Assembly: GCA_947503575.1 (NCBI GenBank)
Contig: CANNDZ010000001.1
Coordinates: 992,001 to 1,056,000, forward strand
From: an uncultured Kordiimonas sp.
GTDB lineage: Bacteria > Pseudomonadota > Alphaproteobacteria > Sphingomonadales > Kordiimonadaceae
Length of the DNA stretch: 64,000 nt
Reading direction: 5' to 3'
The position numbers and the translations under genes are program-made. Shown piece after piece: positions 27,363-62,112 of this stretch. The number at the start of each line of letters is the position of its first letter. The first letter of the stretch is position 1. The notes beneath the pieces were generated by a model, which saw nothing but the letters and a program-made list of their open reading frames with translations, was not told the DNA's origin and searched no databases.

Positions 27363-27499
27363 TTTCATTCCTCTCAGCGTTAGTTTGCATGAAGCAACAC
27401 AGCGTGAGATAGACTGGATGGCGGGTCAAACCATATTTTTTTGGGCTCTGGATCACTGCGGCGTTGACTCAGGTAGGTCGCTTCGCTATTCACGGCGAC

Positions 27500-27589
27500 G
27501 GAGACGTGGCTGAGTGGCTGAAAGCGCTCCCCTGCTAAGGGAGTATACGGGCAACTGTATCGAGGGTTCGAATCCCTTCGTCTCCGCCA
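27500..27589 (+). tRNA. tRNA-Ser (anticodon GCU)
   Basis: The 90-base gene has acceptor arms GGAGACG (27500-27506) and CGTCTCC (27579-27585), discriminator G and an encoded CCA. The D loop has GGCTGAGTGGCTGAAAGC, the anticodon stem-loop reads CTCCC-CTGCTAA-GGGAG (anticodon GCT), and the long variable arm of class II tRNAs precedes GGTTCGAATCC in the T arm. It reads serine codons AGC and AGU. Serine tRNAs are frequent integration sites, and the DNA changes character to its right. Confidence 0.97.
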
Positions 27590-28057
27590 CTTATCTTTAG
27601 AGAAACTTTCTCTCCAATTTCTAAAAATTCATTTCACCTAATAATTCAATGACTTGACTGCAGCTTGTGTCATGGATCCGGCTGGAGTTAGCCTAATATG
27701 GGCTTGTGAATCTCGCTCCTACCCAGCGACTTTCTCTGGCGCATCAGTTGCTTGCAAATTGGTTGTGGGATTTGGCAGCCAATTTCGTGGGGACTAATTG
27801 AGAAATGGATATATCACGATTCAAAGTAAATTGCGGGTTCGACCCAAAGCGGCATTCTCGTCTGTTCCGAACTCATGCTCTGTGGGCGATAAGCATAAGT
27901 TATCGGTAGTAAATTTAGTGACCAATAATGGCCTGTTTGCGCTCACATGAAACTGCAGCCGACGGCGAACCTACACCTAACTTTCAATTACAATTTATCA
28001 ATTTATACTTGATTTTAGCTGGAGTTTATAGGCCACAGCTATCAAGCGGATATTGGT
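27590..28057. other. Gene-free AT-rich stretch after the tRNA
   Basis: I see no convincing gene. A perfect inverted repeat AGAGAAA-C-TTTCTCT at 27599-27613 starts ten bases after the tRNA CCA; it may be a weak terminator, but no T run follows. I found no second copy of the tRNA 3' end in this stretch. Base composition is visibly lower in GC than to the left. Confidence 0.5.
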
Positions 28058-28771
28058 ATGACCGAAGAACCGTTCAACAATGAGAATAATGGAAACCCGG
28101 AGACTGTCATCTCGGAATTGAGTAAAGTCTCAGAGCTTCTACTCAAAGACTTTGACCTAGCATGGCAGTATTACAACAGAAACTTAGATGAGAGAAACAG
28201 GCTGTTCGAACTATTTCTGAAGTTTGTTAGCTTGCCACTTTTTGTTGTCTCTTCCGTTATTGCGCTAATCCCTCTCAGCTCTACTAGCGAGCAAACGAAC
28301 AACGTATTGAAAATATTTGATTTCCTGACATATCCACCCCTGGTTTGGTCTACAATTGTACTTTTCGGTGTTTCTTGTTTGCTCGGGTTCATCATCTACA
28401 TTGTGATGATTAAGGAAGAACAAGTAGCCAAAGACTATCTGGCTTTCATGGGCGAAGTTCGTAAACGTCTGCAAAGAGAACATCAGTGGCTCGAAGGCTA
28501 TCTCAAAACTAGTCCTGCAAGACGTAGCCCTTTCGGCAAGGTAAGTTTCTGGCGAACACTCAAAATTGTTGTCCCATTATCTGCAATTCTCGCGACGGCC
28601 GCGCTTTTGCTGCTTGCGACAACTGGACGCTATGAGGGAATGAGTGTGTTGGTGACTTTGTCATTTTGGCTACTTTGTTTTGGGGACTGTTTGCGCTTAG
28701 CGGCGAAATGCTTGAAACACGCTTGCAAGCGGATGCCACTTTTGACCAGAGATTTAAAGTTTACCCCCTAA
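28058..28771 (+). CDS. Four-TM membrane protein of unknown function
   Basis: No family recognised. The 237 residues have a charged N-terminal helix (about 15-55, DFDLAWQYYNRNLDERNRLF), a first TM pair (about 54-73 and 95-117), a basic helical cytoplasmic segment (about 120-165) and a second TM pair (about 172-190 and 196-213). The layout resembles small membrane effector-type proteins, but there is no partner enzyme nearby and I make no functional claim. It stands alone between the tRNA and the polysaccharide locus, with AT-rich DNA on both sides, as expected of acquired DNA. Confidence 0.55.
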   Translation: MTEEPFNNENNGNPETVISELSKVSELLLKDFDLAWQYYNRNLDERNRLFELFLKFVSLPLFVVSSVIALIPLSSTSEQTNNVLKIFDFLTYPPLVWSTIVLFGVSCLLGFIIYIVMIKEEQVAKDYLAFMGEVRKRLQREHQWLEGYLKTSPARRSPFGKVSFWRTLKIVVPLSAILATAALLLLATTGRYEGMSVLVTLSFWLLCFGDCLRLAAKCLKHACKRMPLLTRDLKFTP

Positions 28772-29267: not shown

Positions 29268-30383
29268 CTACTCACCAACTAATAACTCAAGCACTGTATT
29301 GCTTGGTTGTTTCGAATAGCCGTGCATGGGTAAACTGAATATGCGCTCACTAACCTGTTCGCTGACAGGAAAATCTCCCGCCGAAACGCCCAGATATTGC
29401 ATCGCTTTGAGCAAGTGCAATGGTTTTGGATAGTAAATCATAATAGGAATTCCGCGCGCTTTGGCTTGTGCAATAACACGGTCCCGTTCTTCCCTGTTTT
29501 GCGCCAATAAAGAATATTGTGCCCAACAAGTTTCAAATCCTTCTGGAATCCATGGAACCAGGAAACGGTCGTGCAAGGCAGTTGAATATGCGTATGCAAG
29601 CTCTTGTCGTGCTGCATATTCAACGGGAAATGCTGCCAGTTTTTCCAGAAGTATTGCCGCCTGCAACGTATCAAGCCTGCTGTTCAAACCGATTAGAACA
29701 TTGTCATACTTGTCTGTCCCCTTACCGTGAAATCTCAGGGAACGCAGCTTTTCGGCATATTCATCATTATTTGTGAACACAGCCCCGCCATCACCGTAGC
29801 AGCCAAGCGGCTTCGCGGGGAAAAAGCTGGTTGTTGCAATGTCACCGAAAGAGCCAGCCTTTCGCGCCCCAATTGCACCACCAAATCCTTGCGCTGCATC
29901 TTCTATCAAATGCAGGCCATGCTTTGAACAAAGTGGTTCAAGAACGGTGTAGTCAGATGGCAGTCCAAACAGGTCAACCGCCGTTACCGCAGCCCCCGGC
30001 GCTTCTCCGGCTTTCTGTCTGCGAACAATTTCGTCTTCAAGCTTTTGGGGATCAATGTTGAACGTTCTGGGGTCGATATCAATAAACACGGGCTTTGCGC
30101 CGATAAGCGCTATAACTTCGGCTGTCGCGAAGAATGTAAACGGCGTGGTAAATACAATATCCCCCGGTTGAATACCTAATGTCATCAAAGCTAGTTGCAG
30201 CGCATCTGTACCGTTTGCACAGGTTATCGTGTGCTTGATATCGACATACTCGCTCAGTTTTTGCTCAAGCTCTTGAACTTCGGGCCCCATGATGAATTGC
30301 CCGTGGTTCAACACTGTCTGAATGCGGTTATCTATCCGTTCTTTCAGAGCCTCATATTGCGACTTCAAGTCAATGAACTGCAT
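29268..30383 (-). CDS. wbpE: DegT/DnrJ/EryC1/StrS aminotransferase, WbpE-like
   Basis: PLP enzyme that converts the 3-keto form of UDP-GlcNAcA to UDP-GlcNAc3NA using glutamate. The 371 residues begin FIDLKSQYEALKERID, continue NHGQFIMGPEVQELE and CANGTDALQLALMTLGI, and carry the Schiff-base Lys191 in SFFPAKPLGCYGDGGA, as in P. aeruginosa WbpE. It is the third gene of a minus-strand operon wbpB-wbpD-wbpE, 3 bases after wbpD. The context with wbpB and wbpD makes the diamino-uronic acid assignment strong compared with other members of this broad family. Confidence 0.9.
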   Translation of the reverse strand: MQFIDLKSQYEALKERIDNRIQTVLNHGQFIMGPEVQELEQKLSEYVDIKHTITCANGTDALQLALMTLGIQPGDIVFTTPFTFFATAEVIALIGAKPVFIDIDPRTFNIDPQKLEDEIVRRQKAGEAPGAAVTAVDLFGLPSDYTVLEPLCSKHGLHLIEDAAQGFGGAIGARKAGSFGDIATTSFFPAKPLGCYGDGGAVFTNNDEYAEKLRSLRFHGKGTDKYDNVLIGLNSRLDTLQAAILLEKLAAFPVEYAARQELAYAYSTALHDRFLVPWIPEGFETCWAQYSLLAQNREERDRVIAQAKARGIPIMIYYPKPLHLLKAMQYLGVSAGDFPVSEQVSERIFSLPMHGYSKQPSNTVLELLVGE

Positions 30384-30386
30384 TGC

Positions 30387-32449
<2,063 letters not shown>

Positions 32450-34201: not shown

Positions 34202-35089
34202 ATGAGCCTGCCAACCAAAGACTCAATAATCGCGGATCTTCGAGCCCTTGGGCTGAAGAAAGGCGATGTGGTTTTTGTGGCCGCTGATCTATTGCGCGTG
34301 GGCTATTTCAACGGGACACAGGACCAGACACTTAAAGACTGGATTGTGATATTTGATGAGGTTCTCGGTGAAGAGGGTACGATTGTTGTGCCAACTTACA
34401 GCCCTTATGTACGCCGCTTTTTTAAGAAATCCGAGTTTGTCTATACGACTAGCTCAGAGAGTACATCAGGAGCGCTGGCGCGTGCTTTTCTGAGCGATGC
34501 GCCTAATTTGGTGCGTGGCACACATCCCACAAACAGCGTTGCAGCGCGCGGCGCGCAAGCAGAAGAAATCGTTTCTTGCAGTACGCCCAACCTGCCCAAG
34601 TATCAGCCTTATGCGAAGGTTGTCGAAATGGGTGGCAAGAATTTGATGCTGGGCATTGTGGACGAGCGCAACTGCCCCTTCACATATCACCACGTACAGG
34701 AAAATCTGGGCCATACCCGCCGACACCCGCTTAGTGGGCTGTTTGCGACCCAATATCTCGATGAAAATGGACAAAAACAAAAGTTCGTGGTGCGTGAGTT
34801 GGGTGGCTGCACGAGCGGGGTTCATAAGGCATGGGGGTATCACCTTGCTGCAAATGCCGTGAACTTTGCCCGTGTTGGTCGCTCCACGAGTGCCTTGGTA
34901 GATGCACGCAAATCTACCGAGGTATTGACCCGCGTGATGACCCAGACGCCACACCTCTTAAAGTGTGACGACCGCTCATGCCTTAGTTGTTATGGGCGCG
35001 TTGAATACAATGGCTTGGGGGCGATTTGGTTCTATGTGCGCCACATGACGAAGCCGATTACAAAAATCATCAAATTGTTGCGCAGATGA
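34202..35089 (+). CDS. AAC(3)-family (Antibiotic_NAT fold) acyltransferase, probable sugar N-acyltransferase
   Basis: A 295-residue enzyme of the aminoglycoside 3-N-acetyltransferase fold. Family motifs include GLKKGDVVFVAADLLRVG, EEGTIVVPTYSP, RGTHPTNSVAARG and GIVDERNCPFTYHHVQE, the last carrying the His of the active site. In a polysaccharide locus the likely job is N-acylation of an amino sugar, with acetyl-CoA or the acyl-ACP made by the nearby module; that is inference. It should not be read as drug resistance. A Cys-rich C-terminal part (KCDDRSCLSCYGR) is unlike classical AAC(3). Its stop overlaps the flippase start. Confidence 0.8.
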   Translation: MSLPTKDSIIADLRALGLKKGDVVFVAADLLRVGYFNGTQDQTLKDWIVIFDEVLGEEGTIVVPTYSPYVRRFFKKSEFVYTTSSESTSGALARAFLSDAPNLVRGTHPTNSVAARGAQAEEIVSCSTPNLPKYQPYAKVVEMGGKNLMLGIVDERNCPFTYHHVQENLGHTRRHPLSGLFATQYLDENGQKQKFVVRELGGCTSGVHKAWGYHLAANAVNFARVGRSTSALVDARKSTEVLTRVMTQTPHLLKCDDRSCLSCYGRVEYNGLGAIWFYVRHMTKPITKIIKLLRR

Positions 35090-36387: not shown

Positions 36388-36655
36388 GTGTTACGATGAA
36401 ACAAAAAAGATATCAGCAGAGAGATTTACGGAATTATCCCAGAATTGGGCCCAGAATCTGGAAATGTATACTAAGCGGTTGGGAATCCGAATGACATGAA
36501 AAATCGTGTATGTATTTGGCTCTTTCAACCGGGTCCGCCACCCAAGATTATCTCTCGGTTTTTGGCATGTTTTTGCATAAAGACATGTTTATTACACTTG
36601 TTTTTTGGTGTGTCGATAACTACAAACCTGACCATTATCCATGGGACTTGATTTA
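36384..36655 (+). pseudogene. Possible gene remnants between flippase and transketolase
   Basis: An ATGA overlap at the flippase stop starts a frame that ends after 36 codons. In another frame, bases about 36387-36493 read like protein (ETKKISAERFTELSQNWAQ, then MYTKRLGIRMT) up to a stop overlapping a new ATG at 36496. That ATG opens a 51-codon Cys-rich peptide. Removing one A from the run at 36499 would instead give KIVYVFGSF, similar to a glycosyltransferase N-terminus. I read this as two decayed genes, but that rests on frame appearance only. Confidence 0.3.
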
Positions 36656-37489
36656 ATGGCTTTGAACAGTATCAAGGAAATTGAGTTGCGCCGCCTGATC
36701 GTGCAGACGGCGGCAGATTGCGGCGAGTCTGCGCATCTGGGCGGATGCTTGAGCATGGTAGAACTTTTGAACGTGCTTTTTGGCAGTGTTCTACGTCACA
36801 AGCCGAACGATCCGCTTTGGGATGATCGAGATATCTTTATCCTCAGCAAGGGTCATGCAGTTCTTGGTTATCTCGCTGTGCTGCACGCCTATGGCTATTT
36901 CAGTCGCGAAAAACTGAGCACTTTTCAGCAGAATGGCAGTGATCTTATCGCTCATCCCGTCAAAAAACTGTCCCTTGGAATTGAAAGTTCCAATGGTTCA
37001 CTTGGGCAGGGTCTATCGTATGGACTGGGCATGGCGATCGGGATGCGAAAGCGTGGACAAGATCATCGTCGTGTCTTTGTGATGATGGGTGACGGCGAAT
37101 GTAATGAGGGTTCGGTCTGGGAAGCGGTGGCACTTGCGGCTGAGCTGGGCGTATCAAACCTGATCGCTATCGTCGATGAGAACCGCCACCGCAATGACGG
37201 GGTAAACACGCTTTACAACTCTGCGGGTGGGCCAGTGCTGGCGGACGTATGGCGCGCTTTTGGATGGCATGTGGTGGAGATTGACGGTCACGACACAGAG
37301 GAAGTCCACGCCGCGTATCAGGAAATCCTGGCAAACAATGAAAAGCCCGGCGTGATAGTTGCGAATACTGTGAAGGGTAAGGGTATCGGTTTTATGGAAG
37401 ACAATAACGATTGGCACCACAACCGGATCACGCCGAAAACTCTAGAGACTTGTCTTGAACAACTTGATGCAGAAGCCAGCGATGCTTGA
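36641..37489 (+). CDS. Transketolase, N-terminal (TPP-binding) subunit
   Basis: First half of a split transketolase (about 282 residues). It binds thiamine diphosphate and Mg through GDGECNEGSVWEA (GDG at about 150-152) and has the conserved SKGHAVLGYLAVLHAYGYF and SNGSLGQGLSYGLGMA. Together with the next gene it would move a two-carbon ketol unit between sugars or onto an aldehyde. Split subunits of this kind occur in secondary-metabolite and surface-glycan clusters. An ATG at 36656 is an equally possible start. It is the first gene of a ten-gene run with tiny gaps or overlaps. Confidence 0.9.
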   Translation: MGLDLMALNSIKEIELRRLIVQTAADCGESAHLGGCLSMVELLNVLFGSVLRHKPNDPLWDDRDIFILSKGHAVLGYLAVLHAYGYFSREKLSTFQQNGSDLIAHPVKKLSLGIESSNGSLGQGLSYGLGMAIGMRKRGQDHRRVFVMMGDGECNEGSVWEAVALAAELGVSNLIAIVDENRHRNDGVNTLYNSAGGPVLADVWRAFGWHVVEIDGHDTEEVHAAYQEILANNEKPGVIVANTVKGKGIGFMEDNNDWHHNRITPKTLETCLEQLDAEASDA

Positions 37490-38462
37490 GATTTCCAAAC
37501 GTAACGCGCGTTCTTGGTCGCGAATTGGTGCTCGCGCTCTGTACGGTACAGCTTTTTCTGCGATGGCCTCGTCCAACCAGAACATCATTGGCATGTCTGC
37601 CGATCTGGGACGGTCCTCTGGTTTGGCGCGGTTTGCGAGTGAGTATCCCGATCAGTTTATCAACACAGGTATTGCTGAGCAGAACATGGTTGGCACTGCT
37701 GCCGGGTTGGCGCGCATGGGCTTTGATGTATTTGCATCGACTTTCGCGCCTTTCGCTTCTCTGCGAGCAGGAGAGATAGTCCGTATGAATATGGGCTACA
37801 TGCAAGAGCCGGTGAAGCTGGTTGCGCTGGGAAGTGGGCTGGCAATGGCATTCCTTGGTAATTCCCACTATGGTCTGGAAGACGTAGGGGTCATGCGCAC
37901 GATTCCCGGTCTGACGATTATATCGCCCGCGGACTGCGCTGAGATCGTGAAAACGCTGTTAGCCTGTGTGGGGTTTGATCGCCCGGTCTATATTCGCCTG
38001 ACAGGGGCTATTAATCTGCCTATAGTCTACGAGGAAGACTATGACTTCCAGATTGGCAAGGCCGTTTGGATCAGGCCCGCGCAGCCCACAACGATTGTTT
38101 CGGCTGGCAGCACGGTGGGCCATGCACTTCAGGCCATCAAACAGCTTGAGGAAGACGGAAAAGATGTTGGTCTTCTCAATATGCACACGATTAAGCCGCT
38201 TGATGCCGAGGCTATCGCCCACTGTGTAGCCTCCAGCGAGCAGATCTGTGTAATAGAGGAACATACAAGTGTCGGTGGCTTGGGAAGTGCCGTACTTCAA
38301 CACATTAATGAGTTCCATCCCGACTATAAAGGCCGTGTGCTATTGCACTCAATAAAGGATCGCTATGTCGAGACAGGAAATTATGCCTTCCTGCTAGAGG
38401 TCAACAAGCTTGACGCGGCAGGCATCCGTGAGTTCCTTAAGGAAAGTGCCGGTGTCTCCTAA
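37482..38462 (+). CDS. Transketolase, C-terminal subunit
   Basis: The second half of the split enzyme, about 326 residues. The pyrimidine-binding domain has FINTGIAEQNMVGTAAGLA with the catalytic Glu at about 66 that activates TPP. The C-terminal domain follows (GKDVGLLNMHTIKPLDAEAI, VIEEHTSVGGLGSAV). The ATG at 37482 overlaps the N-subunit stop by eight bases, so the halves are made in balance; an earlier in-frame ATG at 37455 lies inside the upstream gene. Donor and acceptor are unknown; see the finding on the acyl module. Confidence 0.9.
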   Translation: MLEISKRNARSWSRIGARALYGTAFSAMASSNQNIIGMSADLGRSSGLARFASEYPDQFINTGIAEQNMVGTAAGLARMGFDVFASTFAPFASLRAGEIVRMNMGYMQEPVKLVALGSGLAMAFLGNSHYGLEDVGVMRTIPGLTIISPADCAEIVKTLLACVGFDRPVYIRLTGAINLPIVYEEDYDFQIGKAVWIRPAQPTTIVSAGSTVGHALQAIKQLEEDGKDVGLLNMHTIKPLDAEAIAHCVASSEQICVIEEHTSVGGLGSAVLQHINEFHPDYKGRVLLHSIKDRYVETGNYAFLLEVNKLDAAGIREFLKESAGVS

Positions 38463-38516
38463 AAGCTTTGTTTAGGTATGAAGAAAAAAATTGTTCAATT
38501 AGACCAAGGATATCAA

Positions 38517-38756
38517 ATGTCTGCCCAGGAAAAATATGATGAGGCCTTTATTGAAACTTTCGAGATCGAGAAAAGCGATCTGACTGAAAAACTCGAGTAT
38601 CAAAGCATCCCCGCCTGGGATTCCGTAGGTCATATGGCGTTGATGGCTGAAATTGAGGAAGTCTTCGATATCATGCTTGAGATGGACGATATTTTGGAAT
38701 TTGGCTCTTACACGACTGGGCGCGAAACGCTTAAGAAGTATGACGTTGAATTCTAA
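38517..38756 (+). CDS. Acyl carrier protein
   Basis: A 79-residue acidic ACP. The phosphopantetheine attachment site is Ser36 in PAWDSVGHMALM. The ATG at 38517 has AAGGA at six bases; an in-frame ATG at 38478 lies almost on top of an AGG and is less likely. It is a dedicated carrier, separate from the fatty-acid-synthesis ACP, and lies directly before an acyl-AMP ligase, which should load it. The ligase start overlaps its 3' end by 17 bases. Confidence 0.88.
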   Translation: MSAQEKYDEAFIETFEIEKSDLTEKLEYQSIPAWDSVGHMALMAEIEEVFDIMLEMDDILEFGSYTTGRETLKKYDVEF

Positions 38757-40140
38757 ACGCTTCTGGCAATCCCAAGGCTCTGATGAGGACGCTCGCGTTT
38801 TTCTCATAGAAGACGGCTTTGAGCAAAGTTACGCGCAGGTATTCGCTAACGGTGATGCCCTTATGGCGGGCTGTAAACGCGGTTTGGTCGCAATTCTTTG
38901 CGACAAAAGCGCTGCAACGGTAACCGCCTATTTTGGCGCACTGCGTAACGGGCTTGTGCCACTTTTACTAGATGCGGATGCTAAACCTGCAGCCCTAAAC
39001 CGGATATTTGCTGCCTACCGCCCAGATTATGTCTTTGATCCGCAGGGCAGGGGCCATGAGGGTATTGAGACAGTTGCTGACCTTAATGCGGCCACTTTGT
39101 CTGCATCGACTGAGCAGCAGACACCAGTCCCGCACCCTGATAATGCTGTGCTGCTTGCGACTTCGGGTTCCACAGGTGATCCAAAATTTGTGCGCCTTAG
39201 CCACAACTCGCTTGATACATGCACCCGGTCTATCTGTGATTATCTTGGCCTCACACACACCCGGCGGTGCATTTCACTTTTGCCACTGCACTATTCCTAT
39301 GGCCTTTCCGTGCTGAACACGGCTGCCGCTGCACGTGCAAGTTTCGTGATCTCAAACCATTCCGTGCTGGATAAGGATTTATGGCGTTTAATGGCAGAAC
39401 TGGGGGTTACTGACCTTTCAGGTGTGCCTTTCATCTTTGAAATGCTGCGCCGGATACGCGTACCAGCCGAAGCGCTGCAAGCGCTTGAGTGTGTCACGCA
39501 GGCTGGAGGACGCCTTGATCCCAAGCTTACGCGACATTTTCGCGAGAAGTTTGGTGCCGAAGGCATCCGCTTTTTCACAATGTATGGGCAGACCGAGGCC
39601 TCGCCGCGCATTTCCTATCTACCCCCTGAGCGAGCTGCAGAAAAAGAGGGGTCAGTTGGCGTGCCAATCTCGTGTGGAGAAGCGTTGATTGCAGAGACTA
39701 AAGCAGCCTCGGGAGAGGGAGAGCTACTCTATCGGGGAACCAATGTGGCCCTTGGATATGCCTATTCGCGTGAGGATATCGCACGCGGCGACGAATTTGG
39801 CGGATCTCTTTTAACCGGCGATCAAGTGCGCATTGATGACGAAGGCTTCATCTTTATCGTGGGCAGGCGCAAACGCTTCGTAAAGCTCCAAGGAGTGTCA
39901 GTAAACCTTGATCATGTCGAAAATCTGTTGAAAGAGGCTAATCTGGATTGCATCGTCGTAGGACGGGAAAACTTGATAATTGTCTGTCATTTAGAGAATA
40001 TGGCCGAAGAGATTACAGCCGTTGTGGCCGAGAATTTTGCGTTTCATCCAACGACCTTTCGGCTGCAGGAAGTTGATACTCTTACCATGAACTCCAACGG
40101 TAAACCCGACTATGCTGCGCTCAGTGCGCAATTTCTGTGA
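38740..40140 (+). CDS. AMP-dependent acyl/acid ligase (ANL superfamily)
   Basis: Adenylate-forming enzyme of about 466 residues. Core motifs are LLATSGSTGDPKFVRLSH (ATP P-loop), MYGQTEASPRISYLP and LLTGDQVRIDDEGFIFIVGRRKRFVKLQG (hinge region), followed by a small C-terminal domain containing SNGKPDY with the catalytic Lys. It should activate a carboxylic acid as the adenylate and pass it to the adjacent ACP. It is somewhat shorter than usual acyl-CoA ligases, in keeping with a carrier-protein loader. The frame is open 29 codons upstream inside the ACP gene; I take the ATG at 38740. Confidence 0.88.
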   Translation: MTLNSKRFWQSQGSDEDARVFLIEDGFEQSYAQVFANGDALMAGCKRGLVAILCDKSAATVTAYFGALRNGLVPLLLDADAKPAALNRIFAAYRPDYVFDPQGRGHEGIETVADLNAATLSASTEQQTPVPHPDNAVLLATSGSTGDPKFVRLSHNSLDTCTRSICDYLGLTHTRRCISLLPLHYSYGLSVLNTAAAARASFVISNHSVLDKDLWRLMAELGVTDLSGVPFIFEMLRRIRVPAEALQALECVTQAGGRLDPKLTRHFREKFGAEGIRFFTMYGQTEASPRISYLPPERAAEKEGSVGVPISCGEALIAETKAASGEGELLYRGTNVALGYAYSREDIARGDEFGGSLLTGDQVRIDDEGFIFIVGRRKRFVKLQGVSVNLDHVENLLKEANLDCIVVGRENLIIVCHLENMAEEITAVVAENFAFHPTTFRLQEVDTLTMNSNGKPDYAALSAQFL

Positions 40141-40151
40141 CCGGAGCGGCT

Positions 40152-41153
40152 ATGCTTGTTGATGATCTTAATGACCTTACGAACCATCATAAAAGCCACT
40201 GCAAGCTTTATGCGGATTATGTTGCTTCCATGTTTCCCAAGGGGCAGGCTGAACAACTCGCTGATATTCCCTTCCTGCCAGTGCGCGCCTTTAAAGAGTT
40301 CACGCTTAAGAGCGTTCCCGATGATGCCGTCTATAAGACAATGCGCTCTTCGGGTACATCAGGGCAGTTCTCCCAGATTTTCCTGGATAAGCAGACCGCT
40401 TTGAGTCAAACCCGCGCATTGGCCGAAAGCTTCGCGGATTATTTCGGGAAAGGTCGCTTTCCCATGCTGGTGATAGACTCAGAGAGTACGGTTAAGGATC
40501 GTTTGAAGTTTTCCGCGCGTACGGCAGCCATCAATGGATTTTCCATGTTCTCGAATAAGCGTTGTTTTGCGCTTAAAGACGATATGACCCTTGATTTAGA
40601 AAGTATCCGCACTTTCCTGGCAGTAAATTCTGGCAAGCGTATTTTCGTCTTTGGGTTCACCTTCTTGATTTGGAGCACCTTCATTCAGGAGTTGAAGAGG
40701 CGAAAACAAACGCTGCCCCTGGAAAACGCCTTCTTCTTGCATGGTGGCGGCTGGAAAAAACTTGAAGCCGAGAAAGTCTCTAATGATGCTTTTAGAGAAG
40801 CGATCCATGAGACCACGGGTAGTTCATCAGTCCACAATTATTATGGCATGGTCGAGCAGACAGGCACGATTTTTATCGAATGCGAAAAGGGTCATTTACA
40901 CGCGGCTCGACAAGGCGCGGCGTTGGCGCGTGACCCCAGAACACACAAAGCTTTGGACCACGGGGTGACTGGTCTTCTGCAGGTGTTTTCTTCCATTCAG
41001 GGTAGTTATCCCGGACACTCGCTACTCACTGAGGACATTGGGCGTACTTACGCGGGGTCTAGTTGTGGTTGTGGGCGCGGGGGCACGATTGTGGAGATTG
41101 ATGGCCGCCTTGCTCAGGCTGAAGTGCGGGGTTGCAGCGATGCCTATCCATAG
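40152..41153 (+). CDS. LuxE-like acyl-protein synthetase
   Basis: Related to the acyl-protein synthetase of the bacterial fatty acid reductase complex, which adenylates an acyl group and transfers it to a protein Cys for reduction by LuxC. Visible features are the Ser/Thr-rich nucleotide loop MRSSGTSGQFSQ, VFGFTFLIW and YYGMVEQTGTIF. The Cys-rich C-terminal end (SSCGCGRGG, EVRGC) could provide the acyl-accepting Cys. The ATG at 40152 has GGAG at five bases; a GTG at 40137 overlapping the ligase stop is an alternative. LuxC follows with an overlap. No luxA, luxB or luxD is nearby. Confidence 0.85.
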   Translation: MLVDDLNDLTNHHKSHCKLYADYVASMFPKGQAEQLADIPFLPVRAFKEFTLKSVPDDAVYKTMRSSGTSGQFSQIFLDKQTALSQTRALAESFADYFGKGRFPMLVIDSESTVKDRLKFSARTAAINGFSMFSNKRCFALKDDMTLDLESIRTFLAVNSGKRIFVFGFTFLIWSTFIQELKRRKQTLPLENAFFLHGGGWKKLEAEKVSNDAFREAIHETTGSSSVHNYYGMVEQTGTIFIECEKGHLHAARQGAALARDPRTHKALDHGVTGLLQVFSSIQGSYPGHSLLTEDIGRTYAGSSCGCGRGGTIVEIDGRLAQAEVRGCSDAYP

Positions 41154-42330
41154 CACCAAAGCCTTTGAGGTAGGCGATTGGTTGAAGACTTTTTCCTTTG
41201 GCGCACGGCGATCCAGCGATGACGACAGCGTTGTTGCATTCCTGCAAGACCTATCGCGCGCGATCCTGAAGCATAAGGAAGCTCGCGCGTTTCCTGATCT
41301 TATGACTTTTGGCTACTTCTGTCGCAAGGCAAGCATAGCCAAGGTACGCGCCGCTTTGTCCGACCTTCACAATCGTTCGGGTTGGGGTACCGTAATACAT
41401 ATCGCGCCCTCAAATATTCCAGTTAATTTTGCCTTTTCCCTACTGATGGGAATGGTGGCAGGTAATTCCAACATCGTGCGCATGCCAACACGGGCTTTTG
41501 CGCAAATGGAACTGATGGTGCGGCTTTTTGATGAAGTTGCGGCGCAGCCTCAGCATGCTGGTTTCGGTAGCGAAACTGCTTTTGTCCAAAGCGACCGCGA
41601 CAGCCCTCAGCTAAATGCGCTGATTGCTCAGGCACAGGGTTTGGTCGTCTGGGGGGGCGACTCCACGGTTGAGCGTTTTCGCTCATTGCCCAAGCACCCC
41701 CGCTGTGTAGAGGCTTATTTTCCCAATCGTGTTTCCTCAGCGCTTCTGTCTGCGCAAGCTGTTCTTGAAATCGAAGAAACTGCGCTGCTGTCTCTTTGTT
41801 TGAATTTTTATAATGATACCTACCTTGTGGATCAGAACGCTTGTTCTTCGCCCAATCTGATATTCTGGCAAGGCAATCAGTCCCAATGCGAGGCTGCGCG
41901 GAACCGGTTCTGGGACGCGCTTGATCAATATCTGGGTAAAACCTACGAATTAGACCCTGTAGCGCGGATTGAGCGATCACTAAATGTTATGGCGCTAGCC
42001 GATGCGTCACAGGGCGCCGTTCAAGTGGACAGCAATTACGAAGATATCTGGCGGTTAACCGACGATACTTTGCGCACCCAGAAACTGCGATTTGGTATGT
42101 TTCTGGAAGTAGATATCAAAGACCTTGAACAGATTCCCCCGATGTTGCGGAAGAATGAACAGACCCTGACTACCTTTGGCGTTGATCCTGAAACAGTGTT
42201 TGATACGCTTAAGTCTAATTTGTCCGGGATTGATCGGATTGTGCCGGTAGGCCGCGCACTGGATATGGGATTGGACTGGGACGGTCGGCAGATGCTGTCA
42301 CTATTTTCCCGAAAAACACAAGTTGGCTGA
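41140..42330 (+). CDS. LuxC-like long-chain acyl reductase
   Basis: NADPH-dependent reductase of the LuxC family, about 396 residues, that reduces an acyl thioester to the aldehyde. The acyl-Cys nucleophile is Cys235 in DQNACSSPNLIFW, the exact LuxC motif. The nucleotide-binding fold includes HIAPSNIPVNFAFSLLMGMVAGNSNIVRMP and VVWGGDSTVERFRS. The start ATG at 41140 overlaps the LuxE stop by 14 bases. In V. cholerae O1 a LuxC-like protein, RfbN, works with an ACP-like and a ligase-like protein in the proposed tetronate pathway of the O antigen. This is a precedent for a LuxC in a glycan locus. Confidence 0.88.
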   Translation: MPIHSTKAFEVGDWLKTFSFGARRSSDDDSVVAFLQDLSRAILKHKEARAFPDLMTFGYFCRKASIAKVRAALSDLHNRSGWGTVIHIAPSNIPVNFAFSLLMGMVAGNSNIVRMPTRAFAQMELMVRLFDEVAAQPQHAGFGSETAFVQSDRDSPQLNALIAQAQGLVVWGGDSTVERFRSLPKHPRCVEAYFPNRVSSALLSAQAVLEIEETALLSLCLNFYNDTYLVDQNACSSPNLIFWQGNQSQCEAARNRFWDALDQYLGKTYELDPVARIERSLNVMALADASQGAVQVDSNYEDIWRLTDDTLRTQKLRFGMFLEVDIKDLEQIPPMLRKNEQTLTTFGVDPETVFDTLKSNLSGIDRIVPVGRALDMGLDWDGRQMLSLFSRKTQVG

Positions 42331-42375
42331 TACGGTGACTATCCATCAATTGTGGGCCAAAGGAGAGAGTCTAAA

Positions 42376-42834
42376 ATGTCATTTTCATTAAATGCAGAAG
42401 AACTAAAGAAATATCAACCTAATCGATTTCCGTTTCTGATGATCGATATCGTAGAGGATGTCGAGCCAGGCCAATACGCAAAAGGCTACAAAAACCTTAC
42501 TAACAACGAATGGTATTTCCCCATGCATTTTCCGGGCGCACCAAATATGCCCGGCGCCCTGCAGCTAGAGGCAATGGCGCAGATGTTGACTGTAGCGATT
42601 ACCACTCAAGAGGGTCTTTCGGGGGCAGTAACCCATGCGTTGGAACACACTGTACGCTTTCGCAAGGAAGTCCTGCCCGGTGACTGCCTCAGGATTGAAG
42701 CCTTTATAGACAGTTGGCGGCGCGGTATCTGCAAAGGGCACGCCTTTGGTTACACCAACGGTGAAGTCGCCTGCCAGGCTAAGATGATGATCACCATCCC
42801 TGACATTCTGGAACAATATCTACCAAAGAGATGA
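42376..42834 (+). CDS. FabZ-like 3-hydroxyacyl-ACP dehydratase
   Basis: Hot-dog-fold dehydratase of 152 residues. The catalytic pair is intact: His51 in MHFPGAPNMPGALQLEAMAQ and Glu65 fourteen residues later, with the usual N-terminal NRFPFLMID. Acting on an ACP-bound 3-hydroxyacyl group it would introduce a double bond. No ketosynthase accompanies it, so the substrate may come from fatty acid synthesis or the reaction may run on a short acid. The ATG at 42376 follows AGGAGAG; the eight upstream codons in frame are not needed. Its stop overlaps the GMC gene by four bases. Confidence 0.88.
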   Translation: MSFSLNAEELKKYQPNRFPFLMIDIVEDVEPGQYAKGYKNLTNNEWYFPMHFPGAPNMPGALQLEAMAQMLTVAITTQEGLSGAVTHALEHTVRFRKEVLPGDCLRIEAFIDSWRRGICKGHAFGYTNGEVACQAKMMITIPDILEQYLPKR

Positions 42835-44429
42835 CGATTTTTGATTTTATTGTGGTTGGCAGTGGGGCTGCGGGGGCTGCTGCCGCATGGAAATTGTGTA
42901 AGCATGGATTTAAGGTAGCCTGTATAGAACGTGGTGGTTGGATGGAGCCAGCGTCCTATCCCACAACAGGACACGATTGGGAGAAAGCCAAGCGCAGCAC
43001 CGCAAACCCTGCAATTGCCGAGCGCCAGAATCGCTGGGACTATCCAGTGGATGATAAAGAGTCGCCTATTGCTGTCTGTAACTTTAACGCGGTTGGCGGT
43101 TCTACCATATTGTATTCAGGGCATTTTCCGCGCTTTCGTCCTGACGATTTCCGCCTTAAAACAACCGAAGGTCTGGGGGCAGACTGGCCTTTGTCTTATG
43201 ACGAACTGCGTCCCCACTTTGACGAGAACGAACGCGAGATGTCGGTTGCAGGGCTTGCGGGTGATCCAATGTATCCCGAGATCGAAAATCTGCTGCCCCC
43301 TGTGCCACTGGGCGAAACCGGCACTCGGCTGGCGCGTGCCTTTAATGCCAAGGGTTGGCACTGGTGGCCGAGTTACAGCGCAATTTCAACCCGCGCAGCA
43401 CGCGGGCGAAATGCCTGCATCAATCTTGGGCCATGTAATACTGGTTGCCCGCAGGGTGCGAAGTCTTCAACCGATATCACCTATATCCCCCGCGCCCGAC
43501 AGTTGGGTCTTGAGATCATGGAAAACATGGCTGTTTCCAGAGTGCTGCTTGAGAATGGTCGAGCAGTAGGCGTCGAGGCCCATGACGATGCAGGTGCGCT
43601 ACATCAATTTCATGCCAGAAACATCGTGCTTGCCGCAAGTGCAGTTGGAACGCCTCGCATCCTTTTGAATTCAACCAGCGAGGCGGCTTCCCGTGGGCTT
43701 GCCAATCAATCGGGCCAGGTTGGGCGTAATTTGATGATTCATCCGTTGGGCTATGTTGAAGGCGTCTTCCCAGAGGCCTTGGACACCGATACTGGTCCGC
43801 AGGGGTGCATGTTATACAGTCTTGAACACCACCGCGCAGCCGAGGCTGATCATAAGCTAGGCTATATGATGCATGCGCTTCGCGGCACAGGCCCTCTGGA
43901 AACCGCTGTCTCTGCCTACCAGCGGCGCAAGTTGAAATTTGGGCAACAGATATATGATGATTTCGACGCGTTTTTTAGAAGACAGGTCGTGATTTCAATC
44001 ATCTGCGAAGATCTTCCCGACCCCAAAAATTGTGTACTGCTGGATACACAGAACACGGATCGCTTCGGTGTGGCTGGTGTCAAAATCAACTATGCACTTG
44101 CGGACAATACGCGCAAAATGATGACCCACGGCATGGGGCGGGCTAAAGAAATCATGCTCGAGGCGGGCGCAGGACGTACCTATGCATACGGCCCTGTCAG
44201 AAATACCGGCTGGCATCTGATGGGTACTGCGCGGATGGGCGAAGACCCCAGCAACTCCGTTGTTGGTCCAGATGGTCAAGCGCACACCGTAAAAGGCCTT
44301 TACATCGTGGACTCCAGCGTCTTCGTCACCGGCTCATGTGTAAACCCTGCAAACACAATCCAATCTGTGGCGCTTTACCTCGCCAATCGTATGGCTGAGA
44401 CAGCCAAAGCCGAGGGGGCATTATCATGA
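42831..44429 (+). CDS. GMC-family FAD oxidoreductase
   Basis: FAD-dependent alcohol or sugar oxidase/dehydrogenase, 532 residues. FAD binds at FIVVGSGAAGAAAAWKL and the ribityl region; GGSTILYSGHFPR and CINLGPCNTGCPQGAKSSTD are typical of the glucose-methanol-choline family and its gluconate dehydrogenase relatives. The active-site His and Asn are in GWHLMGTARMGEDP and NPANTIQSVAL. No signal peptide is seen. It is coupled to the next gene by an ATGA overlap, like the subunit pairs of membrane gluconate dehydrogenases. The substrate alcohol is presumably the product of the module. Confidence 0.9.
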   Translation: MTIFDFIVVGSGAAGAAAAWKLCKHGFKVACIERGGWMEPASYPTTGHDWEKAKRSTANPAIAERQNRWDYPVDDKESPIAVCNFNAVGGSTILYSGHFPRFRPDDFRLKTTEGLGADWPLSYDELRPHFDENEREMSVAGLAGDPMYPEIENLLPPVPLGETGTRLARAFNAKGWHWWPSYSAISTRAARGRNACINLGPCNTGCPQGAKSSTDITYIPRARQLGLEIMENMAVSRVLLENGRAVGVEAHDDAGALHQFHARNIVLAASAVGTPRILLNSTSEAASRGLANQSGQVGRNLMIHPLGYVEGVFPEALDTDTGPQGCMLYSLEHHRAAEADHKLGYMMHALRGTGPLETAVSAYQRRKLKFGQQIYDDFDAFFRRQVVISIICEDLPDPKNCVLLDTQNTDRFGVAGVKINYALADNTRKMMTHGMGRAKEIMLEAGAGRTYAYGPVRNTGWHLMGTARMGEDPSNSVVGPDGQAHTVKGLYIVDSSVFVTGSCVNPANTIQSVALYLANRMAETAKAEGALS

Positions 44430-44809
44430 CAACCCCTGTAGCGTTTCTTGACCTGATGTTTCCGGGGGATGCAGACCGCATGATGCCCAGTTTCAGCGCC
44501 CTTGGGCTAGAAGCGCTTGCCTCACTTGAAACCGAGATCGCCGCACTCGCCCCACATCTAAATGAACACGGTGAAACACTCGCGCCCCTAAATGACATTA
44601 ATGATAAGCTAAAGGCCTTGCGCAAACTTGCCACAGCTCCAACGCAGTCTTTTACGATGGCCGCACTAGAGGCCTATTTCACCAATCCATCCGTCATCTC
44701 GGCCCTTCGCGGCGACGGGCCTACTGAGCTGTTTCCTCATTCCCGCAGCCTGCCCGATATAGACTATGACCTTCTCGAGCCCGTCCTCGAACGATTTTCA
44801 GAAAGCTAG
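44426..44809 (+). CDS. Small partner protein of the GMC oxidoreductase (unknown family)
   Basis: A 127-residue, mostly helical acidic protein with no confident family assignment. Start ATGA overlaps the GMC stop. The opening VAFLDLMFPGDADRMMPSFSALGLEALASL recalls the small subunit of gluconate 2-dehydrogenase, which has a similar FPG..D..MP-type opening, but without its Tat signal. Most likely a stabilising subunit of the oxidoreductase; that is inference from gene coupling and size. Confidence 0.65.
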   Translation: MTTPVAFLDLMFPGDADRMMPSFSALGLEALASLETEIAALAPHLNEHGETLAPLNDINDKLKALRKLATAPTQSFTMAALEAYFTNPSVISALRGDGPTELFPHSRSLPDIDYDLLEPVLERFSES

Positions 44810-44815
44810 ACACCC

Positions 44816-45550
44816 ATGAGTGATATTCAGAAAACCGCCATCGTTACCGGAGCCAATCGAGGCATCGGTCTTAGCATTGCCCAGCACCTCGCGGCTGAAG
44901 GCTTCCGTGTTGCTGCCTGCGTGCGCTCGAGTTCTGATGACCTTTCCCAACTCATCCAAGACGGTAAGGGTACACACGAGATATTTACCATGGATATGGC
45001 TGATGATGCCTCTATCAAGGAGGGTGCGCGTCAAATGCTGAAATGGACTGGGGCGCCCGCTGGACTTGTGAATTGCGCAGGAATGGCTTCGGGAAGTCTG
45101 TTCTCTATGACCCGCATGGAAGATTTGCGCGCGCTTTATCAGGTGAACTTATTCGGGCCGCTGATGCTGGCCCAGTATGTCGCAAAGACCATGATGCGAA
45201 CCAAGTCTGGCTCTATTGTGAATATTTCTTCAACCGCCGGGGTGCTGGCTGACTCTGGAACGCTAGGCTATGGGGGCTCGAAAGCCTCTTTGATCCACGC
45301 TAGCCGCGTCATGGCAAACGAGTTAGGCGCATTTGGCATACGCGTGAATGCTGTGGCCCCGTCAGTTGTGGAGACTGACATGGCGGGGCTGATGGATGAT
45401 AAGGCACGTGCTAAACTTGATGATCGTTCGGCCCTTAGCGGCCGGATCATGCCTGAAGATGTAGCGGGACTTGTCGGCTTTCTTTTATCCCCGGCTTCCA
45501 GCAAAATCTCGGGTCAGGTCATTCGTATCGACCGCGGGATGCCTTTTTGA
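44816..45550 (+). CDS. Short-chain dehydrogenase/reductase (FabG-like)
   Basis: Classical SDR of 244 residues. NAD(P)H binding is at VTGANRGIGLSIA and NCAG; the catalytic Ser is in IVNISSTAG, and Tyr and Lys are in LGYGGSKAS. The C-terminus has SGQVIRIDRGMPF, as in FabG-type reductases. It ends the ten-gene module, seven bases after the small partner gene. Likely reduces a keto intermediate, possibly carrier-bound or the acyloin made by the transketolase. Confidence 0.9.
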   Translation: MSDIQKTAIVTGANRGIGLSIAQHLAAEGFRVAACVRSSSDDLSQLIQDGKGTHEIFTMDMADDASIKEGARQMLKWTGAPAGLVNCAGMASGSLFSMTRMEDLRALYQVNLFGPLMLAQYVAKTMMRTKSGSIVNISSTAGVLADSGTLGYGGSKASLIHASRVMANELGAFGIRVNAVAPSVVETDMAGLMDDKARAKLDDRSALSGRIMPEDVAGLVGFLLSPASSKISGQVIRIDRGMPF

Positions 45551-51321: not shown

Positions 51322-52737
51322 ATGACTTTAATGGTTTATGAGTTAAACGAGGTACCCAAAAAACTATTCAACTTCTATGCAGATACGTTTCCTAAGTCCG
51401 CTTTCGCTACTCTCCGTAATAACAGTCGACTCTTTGAAACCGAGACAGCGGACGTTGGCGCTCTCTCGCCTTGGATCACCTGGCCCACAATGCATCGTGG
51501 TGTTTCGAACATTGAACACGAAATCTCTGACTTGGGACAGGATTTATCAAAAGTTAACGCTGAATTTCCAAACATATTCAACGTTCTGGCGGAAAATAAT
51601 GTGAAAGTAGGGGTGTTTGGCTCACTTCAGTCTTATCCACTTCCCGATAATCTAGACGGATTTGACTTTTACGTTCCGGATACATTCGCAGCCGGAAGCG
51701 AATGCTACCCTGAGCAGTTAAGTGATTTTCAGTCGTTCAATTTATCTATGGTTCGCGCAAATGGCAGAAACGTTTCAAAAGGCGTCGCGATTAAAGATGC
51801 GGGTAGATTTGTTGCCAATGCAGGCCGGTTAGGACTTACCTTTAAAACCTTTAACAATCTTGCGAAGCAGGTCGTGACCGAACAAGTCAAGAAGGACCGT
51901 GTTGTTAGGCGCCGCAGCTCTCAGGCGGAAATTGCCTTTGATATTTTTTATAAACAGTTAGTGGATACTAAGCCAGATATCGCCTTCTTTTTCACTAACC
52001 ACGTTGCTTCTGCTATGCATCGATATTGGCCCACCATTTTCCCAGGTGATTATCCGGAAGGTAAATTTGAAAAAGACTGGTGTATGCGATGGCAAGGCGA
52101 AATACCGCACGCGGTTAAAGTGGCAAATTATCAGTTAGAGCAATTAATTACCCTTAGTAAGAAAACACGGTCTGAATTGCTGGTATGCTCCAGCATGGGT
52201 CAGGGTGCGGTTGAGGATGTTACGCCGATATCAAAACAAGTGTTAATTACAAGAGTGAAAAGTCTTTTGAGCTATTTAGGCATAGGTGAAGATGAATGGG
52301 AGCCGCGTCTTAGCATGGCTCCAAGAGTAGTGATCAAGCCAAAAACATCTTCCCTAATCAAGAAGTTGGAACGCTTGGAGAATATCAAAGTTAATGAGAA
52401 GAAAGTTAACTTCCACGTCACGTCAACCAATGATGTACGGTTTGACCTTGATTTGACCAATGTGGATACGCTGAGTGTGAGTGAAAACGGTGAAGATATA
52501 AGCGCTTCGGAAATTGGTATTGAAATTGTCGATCTACAGGATGCATCCGGATCCTATGCTTATCATATCCCACAAGGCATATTACTTCACTACCAGCCTG
52601 AGAAACCACTTAATGCAAAGGCTGGCACGAACTGGGATAAAGTAAGTGTTTTGGATTTCGCTCCATCATTGATCAAAAAATTCGAAGGTAGGGTGCCGGG
52701 CTATATGCAGGGCGAAAATATACTGTTTGCTGGGTAG
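51322..52737 (+). CDS. Alkaline-phosphatase-superfamily-like protein of the EPS locus
   Basis: A 471-residue protein with no confident family match. LSPWITWPTMHRGVSN near residues 50-65 resembles the nucleophile Thr segment of nucleotide pyrophosphatase/phosphodiesterase-type proteins. FFFTNHVASAMHRYWP and ELLVCSSMGQGAVED occupy the places of later metal ligands, the last with GQG instead of the usual DHG. It has no signal peptide. It might transfer or remove a phosphate-containing substituent, or be a degenerate member. It lies between the polymerase and the bi-domain oxidoreductase, with gaps of 239 and 220 bases that hold nothing I can recognise. Confidence 0.6.
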   Translation: MTLMVYELNEVPKKLFNFYADTFPKSAFATLRNNSRLFETETADVGALSPWITWPTMHRGVSNIEHEISDLGQDLSKVNAEFPNIFNVLAENNVKVGVFGSLQSYPLPDNLDGFDFYVPDTFAAGSECYPEQLSDFQSFNLSMVRANGRNVSKGVAIKDAGRFVANAGRLGLTFKTFNNLAKQVVTEQVKKDRVVRRRSSQAEIAFDIFYKQLVDTKPDIAFFFTNHVASAMHRYWPTIFPGDYPEGKFEKDWCMRWQGEIPHAVKVANYQLEQLITLSKKTRSELLVCSSMGQGAVEDVTPISKQVLITRVKSLLSYLGIGEDEWEPRLSMAPRVVIKPKTSSLIKKLERLENIKVNEKKVNFHVTSTNDVRFDLDLTNVDTLSVSENGEDISASEIGIEIVDLQDASGSYAYHIPQGILLHYQPEKPLNAKAGTNWDKVSVLDFAPSLIKKFEGRVPGYMQGENILFAG

Positions 52738-55102: not shown

Positions 55103-55117
55103 CCGTCGGGTAGACGT

Positions 55118-62091: not shown

Positions 62092-62112
62092 CCGACAACT
62101 GAAAGGAGAAAC

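What the first reader, a model, noticed from the sequence alone, without database searches (positions are those of the whole stretch)
36641..45550. LuxE/LuxC, ACP, FabZ and split transketolase module inside a polysaccharide locus
Ten genes in a row with overlaps or gaps of at most about 55 bases encode a two-subunit transketolase, ACP, acyl-AMP ligase, LuxE-like, LuxC-like (catalytic Cys present), FabZ-like (catalytic His and Glu present), a GMC oxidoreductase with a small partner, and an SDR. There is no luxAB, so it is not bioluminescence, and there is no ketosynthase, so it is not a normal fatty acid or polyketide line. In V. cholerae O1 an ACP, ligase and LuxC-like set is proposed to make the 3-deoxy-tetronate substituent of the O antigen. 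Here the added transketolase could put a two-carbon ketol on the LuxC aldehyde, giving an acyloin that SDR and GMC enzymes adjust. I do not know a described pathway with this full set.
Basis: partly seen in the sequence, partly recalled or inferred. Interest (0 to 1): 0.82.

Follow-up and report, generated by a model that had tools for sequence, protein, structure and literature searches.

The report
Transketolase-extended sugar-decorating acyl pathway
A ten-gene cluster, shared by unrelated bacteria, probably builds an unusual small acid on a carrier protein, lengthens it with a specialised transketolase, and hangs it on an amino sugar of the cell-surface polysaccharide.

Summary
All ten genes are there, tightly packed, with catalytic residues intact. 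They form a recurring module: all ten also occur in Rhizobium, in Colwellia (where flanking sugar genes match too) and in three metagenome assemblies.

In 55 LuxC loci the contents nest. ACP+ligase+LuxE+LuxC are together in 52; split transketolase in 34; GMC in 16, always with transketolase and a matching FabZ, never in the 21 loci without transketolase.

The split transketolase keeps its thiamine catalytic residues, but the loop that holds the R520 phosphate anchor has a basic residue in only 1 of 52 module proteins, against 36 of 37 controls. Engineers changed that site to move E. coli transketolase to non-phosphorylated aldehydes.

Eleven of the 16 GMC loci carry a VioB/PglD-like sugar N-acyltransferase within or next to the gene run. 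The window and Colwellia have an AAC(3)-type one.

Best reading: an extended V. cholerae O1 tetronate-like pathway. An acid sits on the ACP, LuxE/LuxC make an aldehyde, transketolase adds a two-carbon ketol, FabZ/GMC/SDR tailor it, and an acyltransferase puts it on an amino sugar. Every reaction is inferred; the product is unknown. My paper searches listed no description of the transketolase version.

The parts
36641..37489 (+). tktN: split transketolase, ThDP-binding subunit
   Evidence: PF00456 6.4e-44; best PDB hit is the N subunit of the Carboxydothermus split transketolase, 6yak, 2.9e-57
37467..38462 (+). tktC: split transketolase, Pyr + C domains; no basic residue in the R520 loop
   Evidence: PF02779+PF02780; 6yaj 6.1e-53; residues
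38478..38756 (+). dedicated acyl carrier protein (Ser49)
   Evidence: NCBIfam NF002150 2.8e-4, weak; Ser conserved 77/77
38740..40140 (+). acyl-AMP ligase (AAL), proposed to load the ACP
   Evidence: PF00501 3.7e-47
40137..41153 (+). LuxE-like acyl-protein synthetase with C-terminal arm Cys333
   Evidence: PF04443 1.2e-47; aligned to LuxE of 7xc6, C-terminal GCS kept
41140..42330 (+). LuxC-like acyl reductase, Cys235
   Evidence: PF05893 1.8e-21; profile hit to 7xc6 chain A
42376..42834 (+). FabZ-like dehydratase (ATG at 42376, GTG at 42352)
   Evidence: PF07977; 115.6 bits to NF000582, cut-off 113
42831..44429 (+). GMC oxidoreductase, nearest FAD-glucose/fructose dehydrogenase large subunits
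   Evidence: PF00732+PF05199; 6a2u 1.9e-45, 7w2j 5e-38
44426..44809 (+). small partner of the GMC enzyme, perhaps distantly gluconate 2-dehydrogenase subunit 3-like; no Tat signal seen by eye
   Evidence: 3 of 10 family members hit PF13618 (best 2.1e-6), the window member itself none; PDB profile and fold searches uninformative
44816..45550 (+). SDR (FabG-like)
   Evidence: PF13561 1.1e-50
34202..35089 (+). AAC(3)-type (PF02522) acyltransferase, proposed to move the acyl group to an amino sugar
   Evidence: PF02522 3e-21; orthologue directly before tktN in Colwellia L025, 45% identical
29268..31990 (-). DegT aminotransferase, hexapeptide acyltransferase and GFO/IDH/MocA dehydrogenase (UDP-3-amino-sugar-acid type set, by recall)
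   Evidence: Pfam; orthologues in L025 at 454, 308 and 405 bits
35086..36387 (+). Wzx-like flippase before the module
   Evidence: PF13440; orthologue in L025

Best explanation
The module makes an unusual acyl group on its own acyl carrier protein, and a sugar N-acyltransferase then attaches it to an amino sugar of the surface polysaccharide. Proposed order: the AMP ligase (AAL) loads one carboxyl of a short acid, probably a dicarboxylate, on the ACP. LuxE activates the other carboxyl and passes it through its arm Cys to LuxC, which reduces it to an aldehyde. The split transketolase adds a two-carbon ketol (HOCH2-CO-) to that non-phosphorylated aldehyde. FabZ, the GMC enzyme with its small partner, and the SDR dehydrate, oxidise and reduce the product. 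The AAC(3)-type enzyme at 34202-35089 (VioB/PglD-type in most GMC-type relatives) transfers it to an amino sugar. Without transketolase the core would give a plain hydroxyacyl group, as in V. cholerae O1 tetronate. Shown here by sequence: the gene set, its recurrence, nesting, active-site residues, and the acyltransferase link. Inferred: every reaction step. Least sure: dicarboxylate, ACP tethering, chain length, donor.
For: 1) Nested content in 55 LuxC loci with at least 7 kb each side: core four 52; both transketolase subunits 34; GMC 16, all with transketolase and high-scoring FabZ; GMC in 0 of 21 without transketolase (Fisher 1e-4; loci are related, so indicative). 2) tktC: Glu411 and His473 equivalents 52/52; basic residue in the R520 loop in 1 of 52 module proteins (0 of 52 at the exact position) against 9/10 plasmid and 27/27 class controls (exact position 9/10 and 20/27). 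PMC5073344 (abstract and passages): S385Y/D469T/R520Q moved E. coli TK from phosphorylated to non-phosphorylated, aliphatic and aromatic aldehydes. 3) The genome has a separate full-length transketolase, 55% to TktA. 4) 18 fetched neighbourhoods of other split transketolases hold no LuxC, LuxE, ACP, FabZ or GMC match at E 1e-3. 5) Two adenylating enzymes kept together (AAL 53/55, LuxE 55/55) fit two carboxyl activations; LuxE arm Cys 89/90, LuxC Cys 88/88. 6) Hexapeptide acyltransferase within or next to the run in 11 of 16 GMC loci (L014, L019, L020, L021, L024, L033, L040, L042, L050, L052, L061), nearest solved relatives of the L040 one being of pilin-glycan, VioB and perosamine type; AAC(3) type in L025 and the window; DegT in 11 of 16. 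7) PMC4772473 (passages) states a LuxE domain in V. cholerae RfbN of the tetronate pathway.
Against: No enzyme was tested and no glycan structure is known to me for any carrier. H461 and D469 are also missing in many control split transketolases (H461 kept in 9/27, D469 in 3/27), one control (L119, a sugar-catabolic context) lacks the anchor too, and one module protein (second copy in L092) has an Arg in the loop, so residue loss alone does not prove a non-phosphorylated acceptor. S385 and R358 are kept in all 17 GMC-type proteins, but in only 14 and 17 of the 35 others. The transketolase tree has two long control branches whose place is unsure. Three GMC loci (L037, L099, L101) show no hexapeptide, GNAT or AAC(3) hit, and L086 has its hexapeptide enzyme about 2 kb off on the other strand. 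Only 11 of 18 transketolase loci without GMC and 13 of 21 core loci had an acyltransferase hit, some weak. FabZ's need is clear only if the aldehyde is malonic semialdehyde-ACP. The ACP family assignment is weak.
Confidence: 0.55

Rival explanations
1. Same purpose, other order: a free monocarboxylic acid is reduced by LuxE/LuxC to a free aldehyde, the transketolase makes a deoxy-ketose-like ketol, the GMC enzyme (sugar-dehydrogenase-like) and SDR turn it into an acid, and only then AAL loads it on the ACP, where FabZ acts before N-acyl transfer.
For: GMC is nearest to FAD glucose and fructose dehydrogenases; FabZ needs an ACP-bound substrate; AAL is then naturally the last activation.
Against: Core loci without transketolase and GMC (21 of 55) would have no new acid for AAL to activate; 18 of 34 transketolase loci scored no GMC (one of them, L066, has a GMC fragment at the edge of the fetched stretch).
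Confidence: 0.2
2. The transketolase product is itself aminated and becomes a lipid or amino-alcohol (sphingoid-like) compound; LuxE/LuxC make a long-chain aldehyde as in luminous bacteria.
For: LuxE/LuxC are fatty-acid reductase relatives; DegT aminotransferase in 11 of 16 GMC loci.
Against: VioB/PglD-like sugar N-acyltransferases in or next to the run in 11 of 16 GMC loci; DegT lies 1 to 5 kb away in several; LuxC has only 28.5 bits to the NCBIfam LuxC equivalog, cut-off 750.
Confidence: 0.1
3. The split enzyme is a glycolyl-ACP maker (NapB/NapD-like, recalled): it moves a two-carbon unit onto the ACP, and LuxE/LuxC act separately.
For: ACP close to tktC in several loci; lost phosphate anchor.
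Against: Pfam shows no lipoyl domain in the ten proteins; the GMC enzyme that could serve as oxidant was not found in 18 of 34 transketolase loci.
Confidence: 0.07
4. The transketolase only supplies a sugar precursor to the glycan locus and is not in the LuxC pathway.
For: Transketolases make sugar phosphates; the locus is for polysaccharide.
Against: Separated from control transketolases in a tree, lost anchor, separate housekeeping transketolase, GMC never without it among 55 loci.
Confidence: 0.08

Closest known systems
V. cholerae O1 rfb/wbe tetronate pathway (rfbKLMNO)
   Same: Carrier protein RfbK and AMP ligase RfbL for a hydroxyacid (PMC12208996, passages), LuxE domain in RfbN (PMC4772473, passages), tetronate on the amino group of perosamine (PMC3441752, passages). 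That RfbN also has a LuxC part, RfbM is an alcohol dehydrogenase and RfbO an acyltransferase is recall.
   Different: No transketolase, FabZ or GMC there as far as I recall; here LuxE and LuxC are separate genes. V. cholerae sequences were not compared.
Aeromonas and enterobacterial flagellin glycosylation islands
   Same: ACP, oxoacyl-ACP reductase, AMP synthetase or ligase, LuxE and LuxC beside glycan genes (PMC7874193; PMC4875605; passages). Both papers suggest a liposugar component.
   Different: The word transketolase does not occur in either text; I saw no GMC in the passages shown.
Split transketolase of Carboxydothermus hydrogenoformans
   Same: Two-subunit architecture; accepts bulky aldehydes (PMC7661550, start of abstract and passages).
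   Different: It keeps His and Asp where the window has Gly and Leu, and an Arg in the anchor loop. That paper says split genes occur only in archaea and some thermophiles, whereas these are in mesophile lineages.
luxCDE fatty acid reductase
   Same: LuxE arm Cys and LuxC Cys.
   Different: No luxAB found in the scanned part; dedicated ACP and ligase; low score to the curated LuxC model.

Membership tests
V. cholerae O1 tetronate-type N-acyl pathway | ACP + AMP ligase + LuxE/LuxC reductase encoded together | tested here: met
   window; 52 of 55 loci
V. cholerae O1 tetronate-type N-acyl pathway | sugar N-acyltransferase in the same locus | tested here: met
   PF02522 at 34202-35089, syntenic in L025; VioB/PglD type in relatives. 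Its sugar substrate is inferred.
V. cholerae O1 tetronate-type N-acyl pathway | sequence orthology to RfbK, L, N | not tested
   V. cholerae sequences were not fetched
V. cholerae O1 tetronate-type N-acyl pathway | product is 3-deoxytetronoyl on a 4-amino sugar | not testable with these tools
   no chemistry; transketolase/GMC/FabZ suggest a different product
metabolic transketolase | ThDP/Mg residues and catalytic Glu/His | tested here: met
metabolic transketolase | sugar-phosphate anchor (R520, H461) and D469 | tested here: not met
   0 of 52 module proteins keep R520, H461 or D469 at the aligned position; one has an Arg next to it; S385 and R358 kept in the window
lux fatty acid reductase | LuxE arm Cys and LuxC catalytic Cys | tested here: met
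lux bioluminescence operon | luciferase luxAB nearby | tested here: not met
   no luciferase among the 30 proteins scanned at about 29-64 kb; 1-29 kb was not scanned
FabZ 3-hydroxyacyl-ACP dehydratase | curated score and His/Glu pair | tested here: met
   115.6 vs cut-off 113 for NF000582; below TIGR01750's 155; His/Glu 18/18
FAD-dependent glucose/fructose dehydrogenase | GMC large subunit similarity | tested here: met
   6a2u 1.9e-45
FAD-dependent glucose/fructose dehydrogenase | small subunit of the gluconate 2-dehydrogenase 3 family | tested here: inconclusive
   PF13618 in 3 of 10 members, not the window's; model pLDDT 82.6, no useful fold match

The most novel reading that the evidence does not exclude
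A general, undescribed biosynthetic logic in bacterial glycans: an aldehyde still attached to a carrier protein is lengthened by a dedicated phosphate-blind transketolase, so that C-C bond formation by ketol transfer replaces a ketosynthase, and the product decorates amino sugars in many phyla.
Probability: 0.4. Interest if true: 0.85.

Novelty: new variant of a known kind. Interest (0 to 1): 0.63.

Why it matters
It would explain a gene set that annotators name after bioluminescence or fatty-acid genes, found near LuxC with this transketolase in Pseudomonadota, Bacteroidota, Bacillota, Synergistota, Melainabacteria, Planctomycetota and others (tree rows). It predicts a new class of sugar substituent. 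It would give a natural transketolase whose active site has shed residues that engineers change by hand, useful for biocatalysis. It also makes the old question of how tetronate-like acids are made on O antigens testable in harmless organisms.

Tried and rejected
Rejected: one-off gathering (all ten recur in six other loci); bioluminescence (no luciferase in the scanned part); a plain fatty-acid or polyketide line (no ketosynthase among the ten; KAS III genes appear in 10 of the 39 non-GMC loci and 0 of 16 GMC loci); an E. coli example (126 of 5426 genomes match a Kosakonia stretch, none over 80% of it; all 20 listed rows lie in vioA, the other 106 were not listed).

Corrected on the way: my first alignment showed S385 as lost; the HMMER alignments and a new alignment show it is kept in the window and all GMC-type proteins. 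I first took loss of H461 and D469 as diagnostic; 27 more controls showed they are often missing elsewhere. The Fisher value for this is replaced by that (1e-22; related sequences, indicative only).

Led nowhere: the small subunit by PDB profile (best E 0.2, unrelated) and by fold; plasmid search to name the genome (no match); 14-base direct repeats between 27300-28100 and 28500-64000 as attachment sites (none); paper searches for the transketolase version (in one search only 20 of 76 papers were listed).

L001-L013 and L015 were left out of counts; 33 of 88 LuxC loci were dropped for short flanks. L111 and L122-L124 were kept out of the control counts because they are module proteins or score like them. 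In one search negative gaps are partly stop-to-stop ORF overlap, and L024 and L052 were checked only.
Full report
The observation. The window holds ten + strand genes at 36641-45550 with overlaps or gaps within about 45 bases. Family searches give the two transketolase halves, a weakly recognised ACP, an AMP ligase, LuxE, LuxC, a FabZ above the curated score of one FabZ model, a GMC oxidoreductase, an unassigned 127-residue protein and an SDR. Around them lie polysaccharide genes: a DegT/hexapeptide/GFO set, UDP-sugar dehydrogenases, an AAC(3)-family acyltransferase, a flippase, a DUF7033 deacetylase-like protein, glycosyltransferases and a Wzy-like protein.

It recurs. The LuxC protein finds ten Rhizobium plasmid records at 46-48% identity. 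R. anhuiense T24 has all ten genes in two converging blocks, with a hexapeptide acyltransferase between tktC and ACP, plus a DegT aminotransferase and a glycosyltransferase. A profile scan of genome contigs kept the 80 best of 551 confirmed loci. All ten genes are found in L014 and L024 (Rhizobium), L019 (Caulobacterales assembly), L020 (Proteobacteria assembly), L021 (Alphaproteobacteria assembly) and L025 (Colwellia). Against the window, in five of these, FabZ is 79-85% identical, GMC 63-69%, tktC 54-68%, LuxC 41-52%. Colwellia L025 also shares the GFO, hexapeptide, DegT, flippase, AAC(3) and deacetylase genes around the module, so a whole cassette seems to have moved between classes. In the window's own order LuxC is rare: 13 of 296 genomes match, four of them weakly (61.6, 22, 22 and 20.3 bits). 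The only other same-genus match, G087, shows no transketolase or GMC in the 20 kb fetched.

The contents nest. Of 88 LuxC loci, 55 had at least 7 kb on both sides. There, LuxE is in 55, AAL in 53, ACP in 53, all four core genes in 52. Both transketolase halves are in 34. GMC is in 16; all 16 also have transketolase and a high-scoring FabZ; GMC is in 0 of 21 loci without transketolase (Fisher values, indicative only since loci are related). One of the 18 transketolase loci scored without GMC, L066, has a GMC fragment at the edge of its stretch. I read the nesting as a pathway order: core, then ketol transfer, then FabZ/GMC tailoring. Pairwise distances of LuxC, LuxE, AAL, TktN and TktC correlate across 41 loci (r 0.34 to 0.84, 0 of 2000 permutations as high for every pair), strongest for TktN-TktC (0.84) and LuxC-AAL (0.83), weaker between the transketolase and the core (0.34-0.49).

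The transketolase is special. The genome has an ordinary full-length transketolase elsewhere. In a tree, module TktC proteins fall on one side of a branch from 11 controls (89/95 support, 86% of 200 bootstrap trees), with the GMC type nested inside; two controls (E. coli TktA, L119) have long branches whose place is unsure. In 52 module TktC proteins the catalytic Glu411 and His473 equivalents are invariant, while at the R520 position stands Gly (49) or Asp (3), and H461 and D469 are never kept. Counted alike, a basic residue sits exactly at the R520 position in 0 of 52 module proteins, 9 of 10 plasmid controls and 20 of 27 class controls; anywhere in that short loop, in 1 of 52, 9 of 10 and 27 of 27. 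H461 is kept in 9 of 10 and 9 of 27 controls, D469 in 3 of 10 and 3 of 27, so only the anchor loop is distinctive, and one control (L119) shares the loss. In E. coli transketolase, S385Y/D469T/R520Q moved acceptance from phosphorylated to non-phosphorylated aldehydes (PMC5073344, abstract and passages).

Eighteen fetched neighbourhoods of lower-scoring split transketolases hold no LuxC, LuxE, ACP, FabZ or GMC match at E 1e-3.

LuxE and LuxC. The LuxE C-terminal Cys, which aligns with the end of the LuxE chain in 7xc6, is in 89 of 90; the LuxC Cys is in 88 of 88. The relay of the lux system is therefore probably intact. Since AAL and LuxE are kept together, I infer two carboxyl activations, one to the ACP and one to the aldehyde.

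Where the product goes. Eleven of 16 GMC loci have a hexapeptide acyltransferase scoring at least 270 bits within or next to the gene run; a twelfth (L086) has one about 2 kb away on the other strand; 11 have a DegT aminotransferase. The nearest solved relatives of one of them (L040) are pilin-glycan, VioB and perosamine N-acyltransferases. The window and Colwellia have an AAC(3)-type enzyme instead. L037, L099 and L101 show none of the three types searched. In other transketolase loci 11 of 18, and in core loci 13 of 21, had any such hit, some weak. The acceptor is therefore most likely an amino sugar, best supported for the GMC type.

Relation to known systems. The core matches the V. cholerae O1 tetronate set as described in passages of PMC12208996, PMC3441752 and PMC4772473; the original 1995 paper is not held, and the V. 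cholerae sequences were not compared. It also matches ACP-reductase-ligase-LuxE-LuxC sets in Aeromonas and enterobacterial flagellin islands. An Aeromonas glycan there carries a 376.14-Da pseudaminic derivative and a 102-Da unknown. By my arithmetic a dihydroxybutanoyl group (C4H6O3, 102.03) would give both values, 376.15 for one acetyl exchanged. This is suggestive only. Among the rows listed by my ten paper searches I saw no paper on the transketolase version; the library lacks most subscription journals.

Mechanism and its limits. I prefer the ACP-tethered dicarboxylate route because it best explains the core-only loci. If the aldehyde is malonic semialdehyde-ACP, ketol transfer gives a 3,5-dihydroxy-4-oxopentanoyl-ACP, a 3-hydroxyacyl-ACP that FabZ could dehydrate; succinic or malic semialdehyde would not place the hydroxyl so. 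The GMC enzyme resembles FAD glucose/fructose dehydrogenases, fitting a polyhydroxy-ketone substrate; its small partner is only tentatively of the gluconate dehydrogenase subunit 3 kind. All reaction steps are inference.

Verdict. A real, widely shared and, as far as my searches show, undescribed extension of a known kind of pathway; function in outline probable, product unknown.

Noticed in passing
L111:14798-15757 (Ruegeria sp. PR1b plasmid pSD20): tktN is followed by one open frame whose first part matches tktC (79%) and whose second part matches the end of the SDR (67%): the seven genes that lie between them in the window are gone, leaving a fused remnant.
   Followed up: partly
L015 (Rhizobium beringeri TP6 pRlX5): LuxC lies in two and GMC in three separate frames, while the copy in L014 is in single frames: a decaying copy or assembly error.
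   Followed up: no
L036 (Methanocorpusculaceae archaeon): The core set ACP, ligase, LuxE, LuxC plus SDR occurs in an archaeal assembly beside NeuB, DegT and a hexapeptide acyltransferase.
   Followed up: no
L039, L051, L062, L071, L073, L079, L087: Another transketolase subtype adds one or two KAS III-like genes; in five of the seven a GNAT gene lies just upstream of LuxE.
   Followed up: no
window 52958-56713: A 714-aa zinc-alcohol-dehydrogenase/GFO fusion followed by a heparinase II/III-like protein, then a glycosyltransferase.
   Followed up: no
window 27500-27589 and 60547-63998: A tRNA-Ser stands near one end of the lower-GC polysaccharide stretch (48.4% against 52.8%), and a large serine recombinase with two RepB/ParB-like genes at the other; no shared 14-base repeat was found near the tRNA.
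   Followed up: partly
window 51322-52737: A 471-aa protein in the polysaccharide locus with no Pfam match.
   Followed up: no
L119:3974-4918 (Cryobacterium plasmid): A split transketolase beside sugar-phosphate isomerase and dihydroxyacetone kinase genes also lacks the phosphate-anchor residue, on a very long tree branch.
   Followed up: no
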